Part shown: in pieces, positions 42,645-54,420 of the stretch | How positions within the stretch are numbered: position 1 is the first letter of the stretch | Layout of the letters: every line of letters starts with the position of its first letter | Assembly: GCF_000423445.1 (NCBI RefSeq) | Contig: NZ_AUHZ01000015.1 | Coordinates: 1 to 64,000 of the forward strand | DNA length: 64,000 nt | Source: Acidipropionibacterium thoenii DSM 20276 | GTDB lineage: Bacteria > Actinomycetota > Actinomycetes > Propionibacteriales > Propionibacteriaceae | Reading direction: 5' to 3' | Position numbers and translations under genes: made by a program | Notes under the pieces: model-generated | The model's database searches: none | What the model was told of the DNA's origin: nothing | Seen by the model: only the letters and a program-made list of their open reading frames with translations

Positions 42645-45152
42645 ATGGCGACCCGTGTGTCTTCCCCGACGCGGTCCCGCAGGAGCCCGGCGAAGAAGAC
42701 GTCGGGCAGCAGCGGCACGCGATCAGCTGGAAGCAGGAAGAAGAAGACGTCAGCCCCCCTCAGCAAGGGCCGGCCGGCGACCTCGACGACCTCTGAGAAC
42801 CCGGTGGCCCGCGCACTCGCGGCCACCTGGGCAGGAATCGCACACCTCATCGGCGGCATGGTGCGCCGGATCGGCAACCGGGTCGCCGATCCGCAACGGC
42901 GCCGTGACGGCTCCGGACTGGGCCTGCTGCTGGTCACCGCCCTGGTCGCCATCGTCTTCTGGTTCCAGCTGCCCGGATCGTTCGGTCATGGGCTGAGGAT
43001 CGGCATCTCCACGATCTTCGGCTCGCTGTCCTACGCCCTGCCGCTGTTCGGAGTGGTGATGTGCTGGCGGATCTTCCGCCACCCCGACCGCAACGGCCCG
43101 GCCGGGCGTCAGCTGATCGGCTGGGCGCTGCTGTTCCTCGGGATCCTGGGCGTCATCAACATCTCCGACGGTCTGCCCCGGCCGGACCGGATGGACCAGC
43201 TGCGGGCCTCCGGCGGGATGCTCGGATTCATCTCCTCCAGTTTCTTCGCCGATCTGCTGACCACCTGGGCCGCCGTACCGCTGCTCCTCGCGCTGTGCCT
43301 GCTGGGTGTGGTCATCGTCGTGGGTCGGCCCTTGCTGAGTGGGATGGCCCGGCTGCGCAGCGCCCGCAGGCAGCAGCTGGAACGACGCCACCAGGCCGAG
43401 TTCGAGTCCCGGGAGGCCTACGAGACGCCGTTGCTGGCCGATGAGACGCCGACCGAGGACCTGCCGGCCCAGAAGCCCTCATCGCCGCCTCCCGCCGCGG
43501 CCGATGAGGTCTTCGACTACGACTCCCTGGTGGCCGGCGACAAGCCTGAACCGGCGACCGCGGTGCCCGCCGAGAGGACCACCGCCGGTCTGCCTCAGGG
43601 ATTCACCGTCCACGAGCCCGCCGGCAGTGCGGCATCCGTGCCTGCTGAGGCCGTCTCCGAGCCCCAGCAGATGACTCTGTCGGGAGACATCTGCTACATG
43701 CTCCCGCCGGCCGATCTGCTGGTGCCCGGATCGGTGCCGAAGGCTCGTACCGAGGCCTCCGACGCGGTGGTGGCCAAGTTGCAGAGCGTCTTCGCCGAGT
43801 TCGGCATCGACGCCCAGGTGACCGGTTACTCCCGGGGGCCGACGGTGACCCGCTACGAGGTCGAGCTGGGAGCCGGCATCAAGGTGGAGAAGGTCACCGC
43901 GCTGAGCCGCAACATCGCCTACGCGGTCGCCTCCCCGGACGTCAGGATCCTCTCCCCGATTCCCGGCAAGTCGGCGATCGGCGTCGAGATCCCCAATACC
44001 GACAAGGAGATCGTCTCGCTGGGCGATGTGCTGCGCTCCCCGAAGGCCCGCAATGACCACAATCCGCTGGTGGTGGGCCTGGGAAAGGACGTCGAGGGCG
44101 GCTATGTCATCGCCAACGTCGCCAAGATGCCCCATCTGCTGGTGGCCGGAGCGACCGGTTCGGGAAAGTCGAGCTTCGTCAACTCGCTCATCACCTCGGT
44201 GATGATGCGCGCCACCCCCGAGGACGTCCGGATGATGCTGGTGGATCCCAAGCGGGTCGAGCTCAACCAGTACGAGGGCATCCCGCACCTGGTGACACCG
44301 ATCATCACCAATGCCAAGAAGGCCGCCGAGGCCCTGCAGTGGGTGGTCCGCGAGATGGACCAGCGCTACGACGACCTGGCAGCCTTCGGGTTCCGTCACG
44401 TCAAGGACTTCAACAAGGCGGTCCGGGCCGGCCAGGTGACCCTGCCCGAGGGGTCCCAGCGGGTACTGGCCCCCTATCCGTACCTGCTGGTGGTCGTCGA
44501 CGAACTGGCCGACCTGATGCTGGTCGCTCCTCGCGACGTCGAGGACTCCATCGTGCGCATCACCCAGCTGGCCCGCGCCGCCGGCATCCACCTGGTACTG
44601 GCCACCCAGCGCCCCTCCACCGACGTCGTCACCGGCCTCATCAAGGCCAATGTGCCCTCCCGGCTGGCATTCGCGACCTCCTCGATGACCGATTCGAGGG
44701 TCATTCTGGATCAGCCCGGGGCCGAGAAGCTGGTCGGTCAGGGCGACGGACTGTTCCTGCCGATGGGCGTCTCCAAGCCGATCAGGGTCCAGGGGTCCTG
44801 GGTCTCCGACAAGGAGATCCACGCCGTGGTCGAACACGTCAAGGAGCAGATGTCGGCTCACTACCGCGACGACGTCGCCGCCCCGGTGGCCGAGAAGAAG
44901 GTGGCCGAGGACATCGGCGATGACCTCGAGCTGGTGCTGGAGGCGGCGAAGCTGGTCGTGGAGCTGCAGCTCGGATCCACCTCGATGCTGCAGCGCAAGC
45001 TGCGCGTCGGCTTCGCGAAGGCCGGCCGGCTGATGGACATCCTGGAGACCCGTCAGGTGGTGGGACCCTCCGAGGGTTCCAAGCCCCGCGATGTGCTGGT
45101 CAAGCCCGACGACCTGGACGACGTGCTGGCCAACCTCCAGACCGAGGGCTGA
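42645..45152 (+). CDS. ftsK: DNA translocase FtsK
   Basis: FtsK pumps chromosomal DNA through the division septum and activates XerCD at dif. The 835-residue protein has a basic N-terminal tail (residues 1-60), four transmembrane segments (about 85-240), and an acidic/Pro-rich linker (about 250-345). The hexameric RecA motor has VAGATGSGKSSFVNSL as Walker A and LLVVVDELADLML as Walker B. The C-terminal gamma winged helix (STSMLQRKLRVGFAKAGRLM) reads KOPS. It ends seven bases before the convergent DUF805 gene. Confidence 0.95.
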   Translation: MATRVSSPTRSRRSPAKKTSGSSGTRSAGSRKKKTSAPLSKGRPATSTTSENPVARALAATWAGIAHLIGGMVRRIGNRVADPQRRRDGSGLGLLLVTALVAIVFWFQLPGSFGHGLRIGISTIFGSLSYALPLFGVVMCWRIFRHPDRNGPAGRQLIGWALLFLGILGVINISDGLPRPDRMDQLRASGGMLGFISSSFFADLLTTWAAVPLLLALCLLGVVIVVGRPLLSGMARLRSARRQQLERRHQAEFESREAYETPLLADETPTEDLPAQKPSSPPPAAADEVFDYDSLVAGDKPEPATAVPAERTTAGLPQGFTVHEPAGSAASVPAEAVSEPQQMTLSGDICYMLPPADLLVPGSVPKARTEASDAVVAKLQSVFAEFGIDAQVTGYSRGPTVTRYEVELGAGIKVEKVTALSRNIAYAVASPDVRILSPIPGKSAIGVEIPNTDKEIVSLGDVLRSPKARNDHNPLVVGLGKDVEGGYVIANVAKMPHLLVAGATGSGKSSFVNSLITSVMMRATPEDVRMMLVDPKRVELNQYEGIPHLVTPIITNAKKAAEALQWVVREMDQRYDDLAAFGFRHVKDFNKAVRAGQVTLPEGSQRVLAPYPYLLVVVDELADLMLVAPRDVEDSIVRITQLARAAGIHLVLATQRPSTDVVTGLIKANVPSRLAFATSSMTDSRVILDQPGAEKLVGQGDGLFLPMGVSKPIRVQGSWVSDKEIHAVVEHVKEQMSAHYRDDVAAPVAEKKVAEDIGDDLELVLEAAKLVVELQLGSTSMLQRKLRVGFAKAGRLMDILETRQVVGPSEGSKPRDVLVKPDDLDDVLANLQTEG

Positions 45153-45159
45153 TCGTCAA

Positions 45160-45960
45160 TCAGTTCTCGGCAGGCAGCCTGCCGTGGTCCCAACGCTGCC
45201 AGGCGGTGGGCACCGACGGCAGCGCCAGCAGCACGATCACGATGATCCCCCCCACATAGGGGATGAGAGACAGGAAGTAGAAGCCACCGGACCTGTCGGT
45301 GTCGTGCAGACGCCGCCAGACGATCGCATAGGACGGCACGATGGTGGCCAGCGCGTAGCCGAACACCAGGAGGGTGAGGAAGGTCAGGCTCGCGGGCAGA
45401 GCTGGTTCGCTCCCGTACGGATCCGATGCAGCGGTCAGCCAGGCAGCTCCGCCGGCCACCATGAACAGCACACCCCAGAGCACTCCGATCAGGGCGTTGA
45501 AGAGGTACACCCACCAGAGCTCCGAACGTGAGGCCCGTCCGCTGAAGACGGCGTAGTTCTTGAAGAACAGCCTGATCGCGGTGAGGAAACCCACTGAGGG
45601 CCGCGGGCGTCCGGCACCGGCAGCGAGGTAGGGGGAGTAGGGGTTCGGGGCGTACGGGTTCTGGCCGTAGGCGCTCTGCCCGTACGGGTCCTGTCCGTAG
45701 GGGCCCTGTCCATAGGACTGGCCATAAGGAGGTTGGCCGTACGGGTCCTGGCCATAGGAAGGCTGGCCGTAGGGAGCCTGGCCGTAGGGAGCCTGGCCGT
45801 AGGCGTTCTGGTCATAGGGGTTCTGATCGCCGGGACCCTGCTGATACGGGGCCTGCCACTGGCCCTGATCTCCCTGATTCAGTGGCTCGGTCGGTTCGGA
45901 GGGACCGCTTGGCGGGAGGGAACGGTCGGGATCGTAGGGGCCCCAGGGCTGGTTCGACAT
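45160..45960 (-). CDS. DUF805 membrane protein with Tyr/Gly/Gln/Pro repeats, copy 1
   Basis: A 266-residue protein. Residues 1 to about 125 are a low-complexity tail of PYGQ-type repeats. The DUF805 part (FFKNYAVFSGRASRSELWW) follows, with four membrane segments and WRRLHDTDRSGGFYF near the end. DUF805 function is unknown. The ATG at 45960 has an AAGGAAA ribosome site. It shares the plan and long stretches with the next gene upstream, so the pair arose by tandem duplication. Confidence 0.85.
   Translation of the reverse strand: MSNQPWGPYDPDRSLPPSGPSEPTEPLNQGDQGQWQAPYQQGPGDQNPYDQNAYGQAPYGQAPYGQPSYGQDPYGQPPYGQSYGQGPYGQDPYGQSAYGQNPYAPNPYSPYLAAGAGRPRPSVGFLTAIRLFFKNYAVFSGRASRSELWWVYLFNALIGVLWGVLFMVAGGAAWLTAASDPYGSEPALPASLTFLTLLVFGYALATIVPSYAIVWRRLHDTDRSGGFYFLSLIPYVGGIIVIVLLALPSVPTAWQRWDHGRLPAEN
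45620..45835 (-). repeat. Imperfect 15-bp tandem repeats coding PYGQx units
   Basis: About fourteen imperfect copies of a 12-18 base unit resembling GGCCGTAGGGAGCCT on the plus strand encode Tyr-Gly-Gln-Asp/Ala-Pro units within DUF805 copy 1. Such repeats can change in number by slippage or recombination. Confidence 0.75.
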
Positions 45961-46043
45961 GTCCGTTTCCTTCTGGTGGGTCTGGTGCGGCGATGCCACT
46001 GGCACGGTCGCACGGGAAGTGGGTCGGCGTCGGGTGGATGACA

Positions 46044-46078
46044 GATCAGGGATTGCGGCATGGTCGCAATCCCTGATC
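46044..46078 (-). terminator. Terminator hairpin after DUF805 copy 2
   Basis: A perfect 14-bp stem pairs GATCAGGGATTGCG (46044-46057) with CGCAATCCCTGATC (46065-46078) around a seven-base loop. It lies just downstream of copy 2 and upstream of copy 1 on the minus strand. It has no T run. Confidence 0.75.
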
Positions 46079-46118
46079 CGAGGTGATCTGGTCGGTCTCG
46101 CCAGGAGGACGGGCCGAC

Positions 46119-46784
46119 TCAGCTCTCAGCAGGCAGCTGCCCATTGTCCCATCGCTGCCAGGCTGCGGGGACGGAGGGCATAGCCATCAGAATGATGAGG
46201 ATGATTCCCCCGACCCAAGGGATCCAACTCAAGAAATAGAAACCTCCGGACTTGTCGGTGTCGTGGAGACGCCGCCAGGTGATCGCCAAGCTGGGCACGA
46301 GGACCGCAAGTCCCATCAGCACACCGACCACCCAGAGGAGCACCACCCCGGCCCCTAGACTCGTGCTGGTGGCGCTGGCCCCATAGGGATCGATACTCGC
46401 CGTCATCGAGGCGAACCCACCGGCCACTCCGAATGCAATCGTCCAGAGCAGGTAGACCAGGACGAGGAAGAGACACACCCACCAGTACTCCGACCGGGAG
46501 GCCCGGCCGTTGAAGACCGCGTAGTTCTTGAAGAACAGCGTGACGGCCCGCTTCATATCGACCTTGGGGCGGGGCCGGCCACCGGTCGGTGCGCCGTATC
46601 CGCCCTGCTGGTAGGGGTTCTGGGCGTACGGGTTCTGGGCGTACGGGTTCTGGGCGTACTGGTCCTGCGGGTAGGGCTGGTCCTGAGGGTAGGGCTGGCC
46701 CTGGGGGTACCGGTTCTGATCGAACGGACCACCGGGCTGCTGTGCGCCAGTGGGATCGTTGGGGTCCATCGGGGGGTTGGTCAT
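46119..46784 (-). CDS. DUF805 membrane protein with Tyr/Gln/Asn repeats, copy 2
   Basis: A 221-residue paralogue of the neighbouring gene. The N-terminal 75 residues have YPQDQP and YAQNP repeats, coded by three tandem copies of a 15-base unit at about 46616-46660. The DUF805 domain (FFKNYAVFNGRASRSEYWW, WRRLHDTDKSGGFYFLSWIP) has four membrane segments. The ATG at 46784 is chosen because the sequence upstream does not resemble the family. Function unknown. Confidence 0.85.
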   Translation of the reverse strand: MTNPPMDPNDPTGAQQPGGPFDQNRYPQGQPYPQDQPYPQDQYAQNPYAQNPYAQNPYQQGGYGAPTGGRPRPKVDMKRAVTLFFKNYAVFNGRASRSEYWWVCLFLVLVYLLWTIAFGVAGGFASMTASIDPYGASATSTSLGAGVVLLWVVGVLMGLAVLVPSLAITWRRLHDTDKSGGFYFLSWIPWVGGIILIILMAMPSVPAAWQRWDNGQLPAES

Positions 46785-46920
46785 GTCACTCCAATTTGAT
46801 CGGGCACCGTGCTTGACCGTCAGCATATGGGCATCGGCGCGCCGTGGTCGACAGAACTGCCGCAACTTCCGGCAGCGGAGAAATGCCGCCGTGGCGGCGT
46901 GCCGGGGGCGAGGTTCTGAC
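46785..46920. other. Upstream region of DUF805 copy 2
   Basis: No gene is seen. This stretch holds the DUF805 promoter on the minus strand and reaches the left att-like repeat at 46921. It is the last part that looks native before the island. Confidence 0.4.
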
Positions 46921-46941
46921 AGATACCGGGTCGGGGTGGGC
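46921..46941. repeat. attL-like repeat
   Basis: The 16 bases CCGGGTCGGGGTGGGC (46926-46941) are identical to 53155-53170. The preceding AGATA matches AGAT there, giving 20 of 21 matches. It is the left boundary of the putative island. Confidence 0.6.
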
Positions 46942-47063
46942 CTTCCTGGACGATTCTCAAACCCTCGTCCGGCGTTGAGAACCCTGATTTCCCGTGTACT
47001 TCGGGGGCCTGAGGGGCGAGGTCCGCGAGCGCGGCCGCCTGAGAGGCAGGATACGCGGGCTCG

Positions 47064-47417
47064 GTGGTCAGGAAATCGGTGAAGCCTCAAACCCGGTTGA
47101 GTCCTGCCAAGCGTGCCGAGTTGATCTCTGACTACCTGGCGGGCATGCCGGTTCAGATGATCGCCGCAGAGTATGGCGTTCATCGCGGCACGATCCCGAC
47201 GCTTGCCCTTCGGGCTGGCGCGCCGCTCAGGACGCCTGACTTGGAGGACGCGGTCCGGCGTCGCGCGGCCGCTCTCTACGCCGGTGGGTTGACGTTGCAG
47301 GAGGTTGCCGAACGACTTGCCATCGATGGCAGGACCGTGCGCAACGCCGTTGTTGCTGTCGGTGGCAGTCTTCGTCCGCGCGGAAGGAGACCACGGAGGA
47401 TCGGAGAGCCCGAGTAG
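47064..47417 (+). CDS. Double helix-turn-helix protein, recombinase-tail-like
   Basis: A 117-residue basic protein with two helix-turn-helix units: residues 13-50 (LSPAKRAELISDYLAGM, IAAEYGVHRGTIPTL) and residues 60-105 (RRAAALYAGGLTLQEVAERL, IDGRTVRNAVVAVGG). This resembles the DNA-binding tails of serine recombinases and Tn3 resolvases, but no catalytic domain is coded upstream. It could be a remnant of an integrase or a stand-alone regulator of the island. The GTG at 47064 is used; a GTG at 47079 is an alternative. Confidence 0.7.
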   Translation: MVRKSVKPQTRLSPAKRAELISDYLAGMPVQMIAAEYGVHRGTIPTLALRAGAPLRTPDLEDAVRRRAAALYAGGLTLQEVAERLAIDGRTVRNAVVAVGGSLRPRGRRPRRIGEPE

Positions 47418-47626
47418 AGGACCTGCAAGGAAGACCCCCTCGGGATTGCTTCGTCGCCGCCTGAAGGACATCGCTGGCGGGCAGTGCCGCCTTGACGCCG
47501 AGACGAGGACGGGCCGGTGGCGGTCTTGCACGGGAGGGATTTTCGTGAGTCGTGGCCGCATCTCGGCCCCGATGTAGCGGTGCTCAAGGGGGTCGGGTGT
47601 TAAGTCGGCTCCTAGTGAGTTGGCGG
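47418..47626. other. Intergenic region between convergent island genes
   Basis: About 209 bases separate the HTH gene from the convergent repeat-protein gene. I see no gene and no clear terminator. Confidence 0.4.
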
Positions 47627-50329
47627 TTAGGAGTGGGGCGAAGGTTGTGTCACGGTCTCGGCGAAGGGAGAGGATGACGTCTTGTTGCTGACGGCTTCGC
47701 GGACACTGTGGGCCGGGTCATTGGCAAGTTGCTCGCGCACGGCCGGGTGCGTTGGACCCGACTGCTCCGAGAGCGCGCGAGCGAGGGCGCGCCGGACTCG
47801 GACGTCGGGGTCAGCCGCCAGGCGGGCTCCGAGATGGGCCGGCTGGCCGTGCTCGGGCCAGAGGCTGGCTGCGAGGCTGCGAATGGCCCAGCCCTGGGTG
47901 GCGAGGAACGCGAGGTCGTCGTTGAGGGTGTCACCGAGTTGTTGCAATGCTCTGGTGGGCCAGTAGTCGGAGTCTGTGCCGAGCAGTGAGTAGGCCAGGC
48001 GTCGGGCTTCGCTGCGTTGTGCGTCGGTGGTCGCGAGCGCGGCGGCCAATGTGGTTGCTTCGCCGCGAGCGTCGTGGAGGGCGCCGTTCATGCGGAAGGC
48101 GCCGAGTTTGTGGGTGAACTGTTCGTTGAGCTTGTCGTGGTCCGAGGGTGTCGGCGAGGTGGCCAGACGTGCTGCAGTGGCGAAATAGTCGGCGCGCTTG
48201 GCTGGCGTGATGTGGCGCGCGAGGTTGCTGGCGGCGATGAGGTACTGCCCGCGATCACCGGAGCCGACGTGGGGATCGTCGGCGCGTTGGAGGAGTTCGG
48301 TGACGGCGGCGTCAACATCCGTGGCGGGAAGGTGTCGAATGAGGAGGGAGTCACCGACCGCGCCGGTGCCGACGGAGTAGACACCATCGACGTGGTGGAG
48401 TGGGGTGGCTAGCCTGCTTAGCGCTGCAGTGGCCGCCATGGGATCGACCTCGTCGGTGTCATGGAATGCGAGCATCTCCTGTGCCCATCGGTTGTCTGTG
48501 GTTGCGAGCGCGGCTAACGCGTCATGGGCGATGGGGTGGTTGCTCTCGATGGCGTCGATGGTGGTGGAAGTGCGTGAGGGCTGCGAGCGGCCGAGCAGGG
48601 TCACGAGGTGCGCGATGGCGCGGGTGGTCAGTTGGGGGTGAGTGTTTGCGATCTTGGCCACGGTGGTGGCTTCGTCTTCGTCGTGGTAGCGGTAGTGGTT
48701 CGGCTCGACCGGCGGTTGTTTCTCGAAGTGGTGGAGCACCTCGTCGGCGGCCGGCGCTTGGAGGCGGTCGGCGATGCCAGCCAGGAGTTTGATGGCGTTG
48801 TTGTATCGGGAGGTTGTGAAGGAGCGTAGGTCGGTCCTGGTGCCGGTCTCGGCTGCGGTCAGTTCGTCGACGAGGTGGGTGGTGATGGCGCCTATGAGGT
48901 CGTCGGGGATGAGATCGGCTTGGGCGGCCAGGAGCCGATACGTGGTGCCGACGGTCCAGTAGTTGGGCTCGTCAAGGTCCTCGACGATGTTGATGAATTC
49001 GAGCGGATGAGATGCGCCCAGGGCTTCGATCGCTTTGGTGGCTCCGGCGCGGGCCAGGTGGCGGGCGGCCCGGACTGGCTCGTCGGACTCGATGAGGATC
49101 GCGGCGAGCGCGCGGCGTGCGCGGTTTTCGCCGGCCCAGTCGCCGGTCGTGATGGCGTCGCGTAGCGCGCGTTGTGCTGATATCGCGGCCGATCGCAGCT
49201 TCTGATCGCTCAGGCTGGCCAGCGCGTCTTCGTAGGCGTGCTCGGCGTTGGGGATGAGCGGCGTGGAGGTTCCCATTTGCTGCAGCGCGGTTTGCATGGG
49301 GAGCAGGTCGTTGCTGGTGAACGGGTTCCAATGCGATCGGAAGGCGCGGCGGCTCAGGACCCAGGTCGATGCTTCGCCCCATTGTCGTGCCAGTGACGCA
49401 GCGGCGGATGCTTCGTCCCAGGCGAGGTCGGCTTCGCTGAATCGTTGGTGGAGGGCGAGGTCGCGCGCGTAACGAGCGGTGACCAGTCCGAGGAGGGCGT
49501 AGCCGAGCTTCACTTGTCGTACGTCAGCCAGCAGGTCTGCCCATTCTGCGGTCGTCTCAGCCAGCATGAGTCGTAGCCGGGTGCGCAGTACCGGGTCTGC
49601 TGAGGAGACTCCCGCGAGTTTGGTGAGGGCGGGGACAGCGCTGGTCAGCCATTCGCGGTCGTCCTTGGCGAGCGCTGCCTCGCCGGCGAGCAGAAGGAGT
49701 CGGATCTGGTCGAGGGGCTCCCCGATCCGCAGTGTCTCGATACCGGGAAGCTGGGCCAGCGGGTTGGAATACAGCGCCGTCGCAGCTTCGGCGACGCGCT
49801 GGCACAGCTTGATCTGTTCGCTGACGCTCGCGCCGTCTGCGGCGTTAGTCGTCTCATTGGGCGCGGCGAGCTTGGCTAGCTCTGCGAATTGGGTCTGGGT
49901 GAGTTGTGCGGTGGTGGATAGGCCCTGGTCCAGGGCGGTCCAGAACTGCTCCAGGACATGGCGTGCTGCCTCATCTGCACGGCCGACGGCCGCCAGGAGT
50001 CGGTATCGGTCTTTGTCGTGCTGTGCAGCGTGGGGGCCGAAGCCGGCATCGCGGAGTTTCACCTGTCCGGCCTCGACGAGCTCCAAAGCCTGCGGGGAAT
50101 CCTCTGTCCCGGCCGCTTGGTCGAAGAGGGCTTGGGCGCCGGTGGCGACTTCGGGGGTGCGGGCTAGTGCCTCGCGCACGGCAACAGCGTCTGCTGTCGG
50201 AACCAGTGGGGTGTCGAGCTTGAACGGAAGGCAGAAGGCTTCGGCCGTCGGCATCCCGAAGTACTCGATGACGATGTCGGGCCGGCCTCGGAGGAGGTAG
50301 GACAGTTCCTGCGCATCCCACATCTCCAA
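47627..50329 (-). CDS. Large helical-repeat protein, possible C-terminal part of a split nuclease protein
   Basis: A 900-codon frame of a protein I cannot name. It begins LEMWDAQELSYLLRGRPDIV, a segment that in larger proteins usually joins an N-terminal nuclease to a helical body. The rest is alpha-helical, with TPR-like parts (GLVTARYARDLALHQRFSEA, SAQRALRDAITTGDW) and a C-terminal HEAT-like part (LAADPDVRVRRALARALSEQ, LANDPAHSVREAVS). No P-loop or membrane segment is seen. The only start near the N-terminus is a TTG at 50329 or an ATG two codons later, with no ribosome site. The frame is identical to that of the upstream nuclease, separated by one TAG and three codons. Confidence 0.7.
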   Translation of the reverse strand: MEMWDAQELSYLLRGRPDIVIEYFGMPTAEAFCLPFKLDTPLVPTADAVAVREALARTPEVATGAQALFDQAAGTEDSPQALELVEAGQVKLRDAGFGPHAAQHDKDRYRLLAAVGRADEAARHVLEQFWTALDQGLSTTAQLTQTQFAELAKLAAPNETTNAADGASVSEQIKLCQRVAEAATALYSNPLAQLPGIETLRIGEPLDQIRLLLLAGEAALAKDDREWLTSAVPALTKLAGVSSADPVLRTRLRLMLAETTAEWADLLADVRQVKLGYALLGLVTARYARDLALHQRFSEADLAWDEASAAASLARQWGEASTWVLSRRAFRSHWNPFTSNDLLPMQTALQQMGTSTPLIPNAEHAYEDALASLSDQKLRSAAISAQRALRDAITTGDWAGENRARRALAAILIESDEPVRAARHLARAGATKAIEALGASHPLEFINIVEDLDEPNYWTVGTTYRLLAAQADLIPDDLIGAITTHLVDELTAAETGTRTDLRSFTTSRYNNAIKLLAGIADRLQAPAADEVLHHFEKQPPVEPNHYRYHDEDEATTVAKIANTHPQLTTRAIAHLVTLLGRSQPSRTSTTIDAIESNHPIAHDALAALATTDNRWAQEMLAFHDTDEVDPMAATAALSRLATPLHHVDGVYSVGTGAVGDSLLIRHLPATDVDAAVTELLQRADDPHVGSGDRGQYLIAASNLARHITPAKRADYFATAARLATSPTPSDHDKLNEQFTHKLGAFRMNGALHDARGEATTLAAALATTDAQRSEARRLAYSLLGTDSDYWPTRALQQLGDTLNDDLAFLATQGWAIRSLAASLWPEHGQPAHLGARLAADPDVRVRRALARALSEQSGPTHPAVREQLANDPAHSVREAVSNKTSSSPFAETVTQPSPHS

Positions 50330-50338
50330 GTTGATCGG

Positions 50339-50767
50339 CTAAATCGCTCGGCGCTGGGCGGCGAGTTCATCGACCGCGGCCGTGGTCTTGACTGGGCGGG
50401 CCACCCCAATGATGAACGTCTCGACGGTGAACGGACGGGTGGTGGTCAGGAACTTCTTCACCGCGGCCTTGATGTTGCTGGCGCCGAAGCTGGTGTACTT
50501 CTTGCTCTGAAGCGCAACACCGGTGCCATCAGGCGCGAGAGCCACGATGTCCAGACCCTTCTGCGCCTGACCGCGATCACCATATAGCTGCGCGTGCCGT
50601 AAACCCTTCACGTCACGCATCACGCGCCATTGCAGGCGCTCGAAGTCCTCCCAAGACAAGCCGTTGAAAGGCAGCAGGTCGAGCTTGCCGATTACCGGTG
50701 CCCCCACAGGAGTCGACGGTGCGGTATTGAGTGTCGAGCCGAGCTGGATCGGCTGCCAATCTGACAT
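50339..50767 (-). CDS. Mrr-like PD-(D/E)xK nuclease domain protein
   Basis: A 142-residue protein from the ATG at 50767, which has GAGGTGAG upstream. The core reads LSWEDFERLQWRVMRDVKG, then GLDIVALAPDGTGVALQSKK. This gives Glu (DFE), Asp (GLD) and Gln-x-Lys (QSKK) of the Mrr/restriction-endonuclease fold with the spacing expected for an active nuclease. It stops with a TAG at 50341-50339, and the same frame then continues as the 900-codon gene. It is either a stand-alone nuclease or the N-terminus of a broken protein of about 1,045 residues. The OLD gene lies 154 bases upstream. Confidence 0.75.
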   Translation of the reverse strand: MSDWQPIQLGSTLNTAPSTPVGAPVIGKLDLLPFNGLSWEDFERLQWRVMRDVKGLRHAQLYGDRGQAQKGLDIVALAPDGTGVALQSKKYTSFGASNIKAAVKKFLTTTRPFTVETFIIGVARPVKTTAAVDELAAQRRAI

Positions 50768-50921
50768 ATAGCTCACCTCGCTCCCTCGTTGCTCATCTTG
50801 CTTTGGCTTGCCCGTCGGCTGGCAGCGACGTTCCCATGATCTCAGGAGCTGAGGTTCTTCGACGATCTGAACGGCGCGAAGATCGGCAGGCTCGTCGGGA
50901 TTCGCCACAGAGGCGTGACAA

Positions 50922-52829
50922 TCAGGGTATCGAGGTGACCAGCGCGCGAGCGGCATCGATCACCTCGGTCAGCACACCACTGGGGTCAACAGGGCACTCC
51001 TGAGCGGCAAGGGCGTAAGTCGCTGCGTTCTTCCCCGCTGCGCCACGACTGCTGTTCACGATCGACTGTCGAGTCTTGTTCCAGTCACCCCATTCGTTCT
51101 CGATCACGTCCTCCAGCCGGTCTGCCCACACGTGAACGTTGGCGCTTACCTGTCCCTCGGGGTTGTCGACAATGGTCTCTCCCAGGTAGGCAAGTAGCCG
51201 TCGGTTCGTGCCGATCTCGTTCGCCTCGGTGGCAGCGGCCTCGTTCTCGGGCTTCCCGTCAGCTCGCTGCCGCGACCCGCAACCCTTGTCATTGTCGAAC
51301 ACGACGAGCGTCGGGATGGACAGCTCGGCGAGGATTGCGTGAGGCGTGAACAGGTGTTGTTTCCCACCGGAGTAGGCGACAGTCACGCCCTCCACCTCCA
51401 GGGCGGTCTGCCCCTTTCGTGCCGCGATGCCATCGAGGATGCCCTTGTCAGTGTCCCCCTCCACCAAGACCACGGCGGCCGCGAAGAAGGCTTCGGCTAG
51501 GTTCTTGGTACAGACCTGATCCCACCTTGACCGGAGAGATGCGTCAGTCACTCCGGAGCCATCGAGCCGCTTTGCGACGGCATCGATAGACGCGAAGTGG
51601 ACGGTGACCGACGGATGTTCGCTCGGCGCATGCTGACGGCGAGTGACGCGGCGAACCTGGTCGAAGAATCTTGGGTCGACAAAATACGGCGAATGTGTCG
51701 CGTACATGACCTGGAGCCCGCCCTCGGCGTCGTCTGATAGATCACGCAGCACCTTCGAGAAGACTCGCGCCTGGGTGGGATGCTGAAACAGCTCAGGCTC
51801 CTCAATGGCGAGGCAAATGACGCTGCCGTCGTTGTCTTGTGCACCGCGGGCAGCGAGCAACTTGAGCGAGGAGATCAGGAGCGCGCGCTGGAAGCCGTGT
51901 CCCTGCCGATCCACGCTGGTCTCGCTCAGAGCGTCGCTGATGGCGACGCTGATCGACGCCGGGCTGGGACGTACGTCGGGAGTTCGCGGGTGGAGTCGAA
52001 CACCACGACCAGCGGCGAAGGCACTCACCTCGGCGGTCAGCGCGTCAGCCAGGTCCTTGAGTTGCTGGCCCAGGTGTTCTTCGTTGATCGCAGCCTGCTT
52101 CTCGCTGACCTCTCGAGCGAGAGCCTCGAACGCTGCATTGGCGCCGTCGCGGTTGATCGCGCGTTCAAGGATGCGCCCGATAATCGTCTTCTTGCCCTCC
52201 ACGCTCTCTTCACTGGCGCGAAGATCAGCCGTCACGAGCACGTAGTCGAAAAGTCCCGACAACTTGTTTTGCCCGTTGAAGCCGAACAGGTGGGTGACGC
52301 CGCTCTCCGTCTCTTCGAGGCGATCAGAGTTGTCGCTCTCCCATAGCGTCATCGCTTGGTCGGCAGCGCCGAGGTTCGTCCACTTCGGCAGCCCGGGCAC
52401 TTCACCGTTTGAGATCAGGGCGTCCCAAAGGGCTTTCTTGTCCTTCGCTGCTCCAGCATTCCGGATCTCCTCGAACGCTGGGAACGACCGGGCTCGCGCG
52501 GTCATCTTGTCGCTACCGTCGTCCCAAATCCGCCAGGCTGTGAAGATCGTGGAGTCGGGAGGAGCGTAAGTCGGGCCCAGGGCTTCGCGATCCGCAACGG
52601 TGAGGTCAGTGAAGTTGACCTCGACGCTGATCCGGCGGTCGTTGGCGGCCCCGGAGTAGACGTCCTCATCGGCCAGGCGTGTTTCACCGTTGAAGAACCA
52701 GTCCAGTGCGCGGAGAACTGTCGATTTTCCTGCCCCGTTTGGCCCGACGAACGACGTCAGCGCCTCCATGTCGACGCGCACGTCTTCTAGACATCGGAAG
52801 TTCTTGATCCTGACGGACTTGATGCGCAT
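50922..52829 (-). CDS. OLD family ATP-dependent endonuclease (ABC ATPase plus TOPRIM)
   Basis: A 635-residue OLD-family protein, a group that includes phage P2 Old and GajA of Gabija. The ATPase has Walker A GPNGAGKST (residues 29-37), a signature-like HGFQRALLISSL, Walker B AIEEPELFQHP (Glu343-Glu344) and the switch ATHSPYF. The C-terminal TOPRIM domain has VVLVEGDTDKG (Glu457, Asp459, Asp461) and FDNDKG (Asp512, Asp514), so catalytic metal ligands are intact. The ATG at 52829 begins the family N-terminus and has AAGGA upstream; the frame is open to 52922. No UvrD-type GajB partner is nearby. Confidence 0.9.
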   Translation of the reverse strand: MRIKSVRIKNFRCLEDVRVDMEALTSFVGPNGAGKSTVLRALDWFFNGETRLADEDVYSGAANDRRISVEVNFTDLTVADREALGPTYAPPDSTIFTAWRIWDDGSDKMTARARSFPAFEEIRNAGAAKDKKALWDALISNGEVPGLPKWTNLGAADQAMTLWESDNSDRLEETESGVTHLFGFNGQNKLSGLFDYVLVTADLRASEESVEGKKTIIGRILERAINRDGANAAFEALAREVSEKQAAINEEHLGQQLKDLADALTAEVSAFAAGRGVRLHPRTPDVRPSPASISVAISDALSETSVDRQGHGFQRALLISSLKLLAARGAQDNDGSVICLAIEEPELFQHPTQARVFSKVLRDLSDDAEGGLQVMYATHSPYFVDPRFFDQVRRVTRRQHAPSEHPSVTVHFASIDAVAKRLDGSGVTDASLRSRWDQVCTKNLAEAFFAAAVVLVEGDTDKGILDGIAARKGQTALEVEGVTVAYSGGKQHLFTPHAILAELSIPTLVVFDNDKGCGSRQRADGKPENEAAATEANEIGTNRRLLAYLGETIVDNPEGQVSANVHVWADRLEDVIENEWGDWNKTRQSIVNSSRGAAGKNAATYALAAQECPVDPSGVLTEVIDAARALVTSIP

Positions 52830-53150
52830 CTCTACATCCTTGATCGCGGTTGCGTTGCCGATGCCATCCTCGCAGTGGGTGTGTCCGCAGCCCGCGTACG
52901 ACACGGGCGACATCTCGCTCACGTCGAGGGAGTGAAGGGACTGCTACACAGATAGGTCGGCTCCCAGACAGCTGACCGGTCGGAGACCTCGACACCTACC
53001 TATCAGGTACCCCACCTCCCCTACGCCGACGGTCAGCGTTACCTGACCCAAGCCAGCGCACTAGGGAGCGGGTTGCCAACGCGCTACGGCTCCTCGCCTG
53101 CACCCATTCTGGATGCAGTACACGTACCGCGTGTTTGAACATCGTTGCTC
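52830..53150. other. Island segment upstream of the OLD gene
   Basis: About 320 bases between the OLD start and the right att-like repeat. The OLD frame stays open to 52922 but reads as unrelated sequence. The segment presumably carries the promoter for the OLD-nuclease genes; a weak TATCTG is at 52957-52952 on the minus strand. No RNA gene or long inverted repeat was seen. Confidence 0.4.
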
Positions 53151-53170
53151 AGATCCGGGTCGGGGTGGGC
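53151..53170. repeat. attR-like repeat at the tRNA-Val 3' end
   Basis: This is the right copy of the 16-bp identity (53155-53170) with AGAT in front. Its last five bases are the discriminator and the last four acceptor bases of tRNA-Val. Confidence 0.6.
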
Positions 53171-53239
53171 ACAGCCGGGCTCGAACCGGCGACCTCCAGC
53201 GTGTAAGGCAGGCGCTCTGACCAACTGAGCTATGTGCCC
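53166..53239 (-). tRNA. tRNA-Val (TAC) with an anticodon-stem mismatch
   Basis: Seventy-four bases fold as tRNA-Val: acceptor GGGCACA/TGTGCCC, D stem GCTC/GAGC, anticodon loop CTTACAC with anticodon TAC, and T arm GCCGG-TTCGAGC-CCGGC. The anticodon stem CCTGC/GCTGG has a U-U mismatch at positions 29-41, where the usual gene has a U-A pair. CCA is not encoded. The 3' end is the apparent integration site of the island. Confidence 0.9.
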
Positions 53240-53299
53240 GGGTCCATCTCGGGACGCAGACACCCTATCCTCACCCCCGCGCCGCACCCGCTGGCACGG

Positions 53300-53305
53300 T
53301 AGAAT
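53300..53305 (+). promoter_or_regulatory. Leaderless promoter of prfB, -10 TAGAAT
   Basis: TAGAAT, a strong -10 box, ends eight bases before the prfB GTG at 53314, with no ribosome site. Confidence 0.6.
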
Positions 53306-53313
53306 GGTGCGTC

Positions 53314-54420
53314 GTGGCACTTGTAGACCTTCAGCAGACAGCCGACGACCTCGATCACTCCCTGAAATCCATCGAGTCGGTGCTCGACCCAGACGCCAAG
53401 CGTGCAGAGATCGCCAAGCTCGAGAAGGAGGTCGCCGCACCCGACCTGTGGGACGACCAGGAGCACGCCCAGCAGACCACATCGCGGCTGTCGGCCCTGC
53501 AGTCCGAGGTCGACCGGCTCCAGCACCTGCGGTCCAGGATCGACGACGTCCAGGTCCTGCTGCAGTTCGCAGCCGAGGACGGCGACGAGGACTCCGCCAC
53601 CGAGGCCGATCAGGAACTGTCCTCGCTGCGCACCGAGATCGATGCCCTGGAGGTCCGCACCCTGCTGTCGGGCCCCTATGACGAGCGCGAGGCCGTCGTG
53701 ACGATCCGTTCGGAGGCCGGCGGCGTGGATGCCGCGGACTTCGCCGAGATGCTGCTGCGGATGTACCTGCGCTGGGCCGAGCGCCATGAGTACAAGGTGG
53801 AGGTGCTCGACACCTCCTACGCCGAGGAGGCCGGTATCAAGTCCGCCACCTTCATCGTCCATGCGCCCTTCGGCTACGGAACCCTGTCGGTCGAGCAGGG
53901 CACCCACCGGCTGGTGCGGATCAGTCCCTTCGACAATCAGGGACGCCGTCAGACCTCCTTCGCGGGGGTCGAGGTGCTGCCGGTGGTCGAGGAGACCGAC
54001 CACGTGGACATCCCCGAGACTGATCTGCGCGTCGACGTCTTCCACGCCTCGGGCCCCGGCGGTCAGGGCGTCAACACCACCGACTCCGCCGTCCGCCTCA
54101 CCCACCTGCCGACCGGCATCGTGGTGAGCTGTCAGAACGAGCGCTCCCAGATCCAGAACAAGGCCGCCGCCCTGCGGGTCCTCCAGGCGAAGCTGCTGGA
54201 GAAGGCCCGCGCCGATCAGGAGGCCGAGATGAACTCGCTGAAGTCGGAGGGCAACTCCTGGGGAGCCCAGATGCGCTCCTATGTGCTGCACCCCTATCAG
54301 ATGGTCAAGGACCTGCGGACCAACTACGAGGTCGGCAACACCGATGCCGTCTTCGACGGTGACATTGACAACTTCATCGACGCCGGGATCCGCTGGCGTC
54401 GTAGCCAGGCCCAGCAGTGA
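53314..54420 (+). CDS. prfB: Peptide chain release factor 2
   Basis: RF2 ends translation at UGA and UAA. The 368-residue protein reads through in one frame, without the programmed +1 frameshift near codon 25 found in E. coli prfB. The stop-codon recognition motif is RISPFD (SPF). The peptidyl-tRNA hydrolysis motif is SGPGGQGVN (GGQ). It precedes ftsEX and smpB, the usual actinobacterial order. Confidence 0.96.

What the first reader, a model, noticed from the sequence alone, without database searches (positions are those of the whole stretch)
47627..52829. Candidate undescribed defence module: OLD ATPase/TOPRIM, Mrr-like nuclease and giant helical-repeat protein
Three minus-strand genes in the island combine an intact OLD-family ATPase with TOPRIM active site, a PD-(D/E)xK nuclease of Mrr type, and a 900-residue TPR/HEAT-like protein. 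OLD proteins are known antiphage effectors alone or with a helicase partner (Gabija), and Mrr-like nucleases often cap large helical sensor proteins. I know of no named system with this exact set. The nuclease and repeat regions would be a sensor-effector and OLD a second nuclease. Co-function is inferred only from adjacency and strand.
Basis: partly seen in the sequence, partly recalled or inferred. Interest (0 to 1): 0.78.

Follow-up and report, generated by a model that had tools for sequence, protein, structure and literature searches.

The report
Broken nuclease-sensor gene beside OLD gene
What looked like a three-gene antiviral module is an intact, ordinary OLD-type ATPase-nuclease gene beside one large nuclease-plus-repeat gene cut in two by a stop codon; relatives of the two genes are normally found apart, but the large gene belongs to an uncatalogued family that looks like a stand-alone phage-defence protein.

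Summary
The three-gene module does not hold. The OLD gene (50922-52829, minus) is intact and belongs to a family of stand-alone OLD nucleases (class 1 by context: no UvrD helicase or reverse transcriptase beside it). The 'Mrr nuclease' and '900-residue helical protein' are one reading frame, 47627-50767, interrupted by a single in-frame TAG at 50339-50341. In 22 relatives the same nuclease and repeats form one uninterrupted protein of about 1050 residues. A predicted structure puts the stop inside the nuclease fold, before its last strand, so this copy is probably a recent pseudogene or, less likely, a split gene. The nearest relative (another species, 93% DNA identity over the repeat part) lacks both the OLD gene and the nuclease half. 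What remains of interest is the family: a nuclease-TPR-HEAT protein without an NTPase, absent from PADLOC 2023, found among many defence systems, its nuclease shared with STAND (Avs-like) proteins and its N-terminus sometimes replaced. It is a good candidate single-gene defence protein; this copy is broken.

The parts
50922..52829 (-). Intact OLD-family ATPase-TOPRIM nuclease, 635 aa; ORF can be extended to GTG 52922 but relatives start at ATG 52829
   Evidence: relatives 43-58% identical
47627..50767 (-). One nuclease-TPR-HEAT gene (1046 codons) interrupted by a single in-frame TAG; probable recent pseudogene
50342..50767 (-). First 142 codons: Mrr-like PD-(D/E)xK nuclease domain without its last strand and helices; motif D73...QSK(87-89)
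   Evidence: relatives match Mrr_cat
50339..50341 (-). In-frame TAG stop, codon 143, in the loop before the last strand of the nuclease fold
47627..50338 (-). Downstream part of the same frame: end of nuclease fold, TPR-like helices (about residues 194-640) and HEAT-like helices (about 650-1027)
   Evidence: dN/dS 0.28 against the sister copy
47064..47417 (+). 117-aa helix-turn-helix ORF 3' of the repeat gene; its 3' part is shared with the sister copy (homology from window 47337)
53164..53239 (-). tRNA-Val; the conserved chromosome resumes here
46794..53162 (.). Variable segment: absent from three congeneric genomes, replaced by 13 kb of other DNA in a fourth

Best explanation
Two unrelated defence-type genes sit side by side in a variable spot between a DUF805 gene and tRNA-Val of an Acidipropionibacterium chromosome. 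The OLD gene is intact and most likely works alone, as class 1 OLD proteins (P2 Old, Thermus OLD) do: an ABC ATPase that licenses a metal-dependent TOPRIM DNA nuclease (inferred from family). The other gene is a member of an uncatalogued family of about 1050-residue single proteins in which an N-terminal Mrr-like nuclease is held by a C-terminal TPR-HEAT superhelix; the likely mechanism is Avs-like without the NTPase: the helical array binds a phage-made ligand and releases or assembles the nuclease, which cuts DNA (inferred). In this window that gene is cut at codon 143, inside the nuclease fold, and is most likely a recently inactivated copy.
For: Shown: one frame with one TAG; 22 uninterrupted nuclease+repeat relatives; the stop lies between helix 129-141 and strand 146-150 of the predicted nuclease (mean pLDDT 82). 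Shown: OLD and nuclease/repeat genes are not neighbours elsewhere (0 of 28 and 0 of 15). Shown: the only congeneric copy has neither OLD nor nuclease half and carries a frameshift. Shown: the closest full-length relative lies directly between a type I restriction gene and a CBASS cyclase/effector pair; the nearest neighbours of 23 family loci include Hma, CBASS, Lamassu, DISARM, Gabija, bSEFIR and type I RM proteins, whereas control regions gave mainly kinase-like and AAA hits. The same nuclease caps NB-ARC/NACHT proteins, and two relatives have the repeat body with other N-termini, as expected of a swappable effector on a sensor.
Against: dN/dS of 0.28 between the window's repeat part and the sister copy shows selection over most of their divergence, so the loss is recent or the downstream part still has a use. 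A second relative, on an Embleya plasmid, has a single TAG two codons away in the alignment, which by chance alone has a probability of about 0.5-3%; ATG codons follow both stops closely. Defence activity and ligand sensing are inferred from neighbourhood and architecture only; the neighbour scan gives tallies by family, not per locus.
Confidence: 0.77

Rival explanations
1. The three parts form one functional module, OLD acting as a second nuclease with the nuclease/repeat sensor.
For: Same strand, adjacent, in a segment of lower GC than the flanks.
Against: No linkage in any of 28 + 15 other loci; no genome besides the window's with both in 395; in Rhodococcus sp. ZPP the two families are on different plasmids; the nuclease/repeat gene is interrupted; about 155 nt separate the OLD stop from its likely start.
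Confidence: 0.05
2. The large gene is functionally split: nuclease fragment and repeat protein are made separately by termination-reinitiation (ATG 15 nt after the TAG) and reassemble, or the TAG is read through at low level.
For: Only one stop in 1046 codons; purifying selection on the downstream part; the same junction is cut by TAG in a distant relative; ATG follows the stop in both.
Against: 22 relatives are unsplit; two further relatives are broken elsewhere or by truncation, so decay is common in the family; no suitably spaced ribosome-binding site is evident before the downstream ATG (reading); no amber-suppressor tRNA found with a restricted pattern; the cut removes the last strand of the nuclease fold.
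Confidence: 0.13
3. The TAG is an assembly or sequencing error and the gene is intact in the living strain.
For: Draft assembly of 45 contigs; only one lesion in the frame.
Against: Substitution errors are rare in modern assemblies (general knowledge); the genome is 99.9% complete with 0.9% contamination; reads cannot be examined here.
Confidence: 0.07

Closest known systems
Class 1 OLD nucleases (P2 Old; Thermus scotoductus OLD, PDB 6P74)
   Same: ABC ATPase plus TOPRIM in one protein, single gene, best PADLOC model 'Old', best solved relative 6P74 at 2.1e-33 with a profile
   Different: About 635 aa against 528; only the family, not this protein, is characterised; relatives often lie among RM or Abi genes
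Gabija GajA (class 2 OLD)
   Same: Same domain order; weaker matches
   Different: No GajB-type UvrD helicase next to it
Avs / STAND antiviral proteins with Mrr-like nuclease caps
   Same: The nuclease domain is homologous to those of NB-ARC/NACHT proteins; N-terminal effector, C-terminal helical repeats
   Different: No NTPase between nuclease and repeats; about 1050 aa against 1280-1790
PADLOC PDC-S73 candidate
   Same: Weak match to two members of the nuclease/repeat family (0.0011)
   Different: Match far below any confident level; not membership

Membership tests
Class 1 OLD nuclease | ABC ATPase domain followed by TOPRIM domain | tested here: met
   Walker A, E343/E344, E457, D512, D514 invariant in A2
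Class 1 OLD nuclease | Single gene without UvrD-like helicase or retron partner (PMC10568477) | tested here: met
   Neighbours are tRNA-Val and the nuclease/repeat gene; no conserved partner in 15 relatives
Class 1 OLD nuclease | DNA exonuclease activity and phage exclusion | not testable with these tools
   needs protein and phages
Gabija | GajB helicase adjacent to GajA | tested here: not met
   no helicase ORF within the segment 46794-53162
Avs / STAND NTPase defence | Central STAND NTPase domain | tested here: not met
   no NTPase family in any of seven members nor in further relatives except the three STAND outgroups; helices run from residue 194 on
Avs / STAND NTPase defence | N-terminal nuclease effector and C-terminal repeat sensor | tested here: met
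   architecture only, sensing not tested:
Mrr-like PD-(D/E)xK nuclease | REase-fold core with D...(Q/E)xK motif | tested here: met
   motif; fold order H-E-E-E-H-E-H-E-H; Mrr_cat in three relatives; the window fragment alone gives no Pfam hit
Nuclease-TPR-HEAT family (defined here) | Uninterrupted frame joining nuclease and repeats | tested here: not met
   TAG at codon 143; 22 relatives uninterrupted

The most novel reading that the evidence does not exclude
The nuclease-TPR-HEAT family is an undescribed single-protein antiphage system: an Avs-like sensor-effector without an NTPase switch, with exchangeable effector domains, spread on actinobacterial plasmids and defence islands; in some members the effector is separated from the sensor by an amber stop at the same place.
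Probability: 0.5. Interest if true: 0.58.

Novelty: new variant of a known kind. Interest (0 to 1): 0.34.

Why it matters
It corrects a false module call (one broken gene read as two) and points to a family of nuclease-capped helical-repeat proteins that defence databases of 2023 do not list. If these proteins defend without an NTPase, they would show that direct sensor-to-nuclease coupling is enough for pattern-triggered immunity, and would be a simpler counterpart of Avs proteins.

Tried and rejected
Frameshift as the cause of the split: rejected, the two ORFs share a frame. tRNA-site integration with a duplicated tRNA 3' end: no such repeat found in 44900-53400 and no integrase in the segment. 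Amber suppressor tRNA: the only pattern match is tRNA-Arg(TCT). Viral collections: no relative of the nuclease/repeat protein in IMG/VR by exact peptide patterns or in 50,697 phages, while OLD relatives occur on eight IMG/VR contigs. Fold search of the whole model returned only generic HEAT proteins such as CAND1 and karyopherins with TM-scores near 0.2: uninformative. Promoter scan found nothing above chance. Profile of the nuclease against PDB gave chance coiled-coil hits. Literature searches found no paper describing the nuclease-TPR-HEAT family.

Full report
What is there. The window lies in a 2.94-Mb, 45-contig genome; its nearest named relative by the repeat gene is an Acidipropionibacterium MAG. 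On the minus strand, between tRNA-Val (53164-53239) and a DUF805 gene, lies a segment of lower GC than most of the window (about 63-66% against about 69%).

One gene, not two. Translating straight through shows that the two ORFs are in the same frame and are separated by a single TAG at 50339-50341...DELAAQRRAI*PINLEMWDAQELSYLLRGRPDIV.... Relatives found with the read-through sequence are single proteins of about 1050-1110 aa, for example on Gordonia plasmid pGKT2 (33% identity), on Rhodococcus and Streptomyces plasmids, and in further genomes of other actinobacterial families. The alignment passes the stop without a gap. In all, 22 loci (not counting near-identical copies) have one open frame over nuclease and repeats.

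Where the stop falls. An AlphaFold2 model of the read-through protein (17 sequences, mean pLDDT 82, pTM 0.75) shows a restriction-endonuclease-like domain (H39-54, E57-62, E73-77, E83-89, H96-108, E117-122, H129-141, E146-150, H152-159), a hinge of low confidence at 182-194, then helical pairs typical of TPR (to about 640) and HEAT (to 1027). Codon 143 is in the loop before strand 146-150. The upstream fragment therefore lacks the last strand and helices of the nuclease, and the downstream fragment begins with them. That arrangement is not expected of two independently evolved genes (inference).

Pseudogene, split gene or error. Between the window and its sister copy in another species (92.9% DNA identity, window 47337-50299) the repeat part has dN/dS 0.28 (bootstrap 0.22-0.40), so selection kept the sequence over most of their separation. 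The sister copy has lost everything before residue 156 and has a one-base insertion. A copy in G933 is broken by a small insertion with stops. A copy on an Embleya plasmid has one TAG at a position two codons from the window's in the alignment, followed 3 nt later by ATG. Two stops within two codons of each other would arise by chance with a probability of 0.5% for that pair and about 1-3% allowing for several broken copies. I take recent inactivation as most likely, and keep the split-gene reading at about 13%. The genome-wide pattern search for an amber suppressor tRNA was limited in form and found only tRNA-Arg(TCT).

OLD is a separate gene. The OLD protein is complete and its Walker A, E457, D512 and D514 are invariant in relatives. 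Relatives of 43-58% identity on plasmids from Rhodococcus, Citricoccus, Paraburkholderia, Aeromonas and Enterobacteriaceae have varied neighbours (RM enzymes, Abi, helicases) and no partner shared by all. No OLD relative lies in the flanks of 28 nuclease/repeat loci and no nuclease/repeat relative lies in those of 15 OLD loci. Flanks are mostly 4-9 kb, some cut by contig ends. In the same 395 Actinomycetes genomes the nuclease/repeat profile matched seven besides the window's (four along the repeat body, three by the nuclease alone), the OLD profile six, and none had both; because the expected overlap by chance is near zero, the neighbourhood data are the stronger evidence. Rhodococcus sp. ZPP carries both families on different plasmids. 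Among congeneric genomes no full-length OLD relative was found. One caveat: the sister copy is truncated, so its lack of OLD could be part of the same deletion.

A variable site. In G001, G002 and G004 the DUF805 region is followed, after about 1-2 kb that includes further DUF805-like copies, by tRNA-Val with neither gene; in G003 13 kb of other DNA (LtrA, transposases, a two-component system) lies there. The window's variable segment is about 46794-53162.

What the nuclease/repeat family probably does. It has no confident match in PADLOC 2023, and Pfam sees only Mrr_cat, TPR and HEAT fragments. The closest full-length relative (G524) is flanked by a type I restriction gene on one side and a CBASS cyclase and 4TM effector on the other. 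The nearest two ORFs on each side of 23 family loci include proteins of Hma, CBASS (with NucC), Lamassu, DISARM, Gabija, bSEFIR, PD-Lambda-1 and type I RM; 84 proteins from control regions, most of them in the same genomes, gave mainly kinase-like PD-T4-6 and MADS models and no comparable spread. The ORFs were picked by a simple codon-composition rule, and the tool reports counts per family, so this is a qualitative enrichment. The nuclease domain also caps NB-ARC and NACHT proteins, and two relatives carry the repeat body with other N-termini. In Avs proteins the N-terminal effector is switched by a C-terminal repeat sensor through a central NTPase (PMC12931631); here the NTPase is missing, so direct control of the nuclease by the repeat array is the simplest proposal (inferred, not shown).

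Verdict. The useful lead is the uncatalogued nuclease-TPR-HEAT family, for which other, intact copies are better starting points.

Noticed in passing
L013:5755-8943: Embleya sp. NBC_00888 plasmid relative has a single in-frame TAG two alignment codons from the window's stop, with ATG 3 nt later; unexplained coincidence or recurrent split.
   Followed up: partly
L040:7491-10625 and L041:7505-10588: Relatives with the same TPR-HEAT body but different N-terminal domains, suggesting effector exchange.
   Followed up: partly
L042:8489-13180, L043:2097-5933, L044:9782-15025: The same nuclease domain at the N-terminus of NB-ARC/NACHT (STAND) proteins of 1280-1750 aa.
   Followed up: partly
L038:5958-9335: In the closest full-length relative (G524) the open frame extends upstream into a fragment resembling an IS3 transposase start, probably an insertion remnant.
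   Followed up: no
L007:1-9075: On Gordonia plasmid pGKT2 the nuclease/repeat gene directly follows DUF1156 and DUF499 genes, as if part of that defence operon.
   Followed up: no
window 45160-47561 and L093-L096: Tandem DUF805 genes with proline/glutamine/tyrosine-rich repeat N-termini, varying in number between congeneric genomes beside the same tRNA-Val.
   Followed up: partly
L096:3700-16800: In G003 the same chromosomal spot carries 13 kb with LtrA, three transposases and a two-component system: an insertion hot spot.
   Followed up: partly
L023:4883-7881: Closest OLD relative (58%), on Rhodococcus plasmid pRZP5, lies directly after an Abi family gene on the same strand.
   Followed up: no
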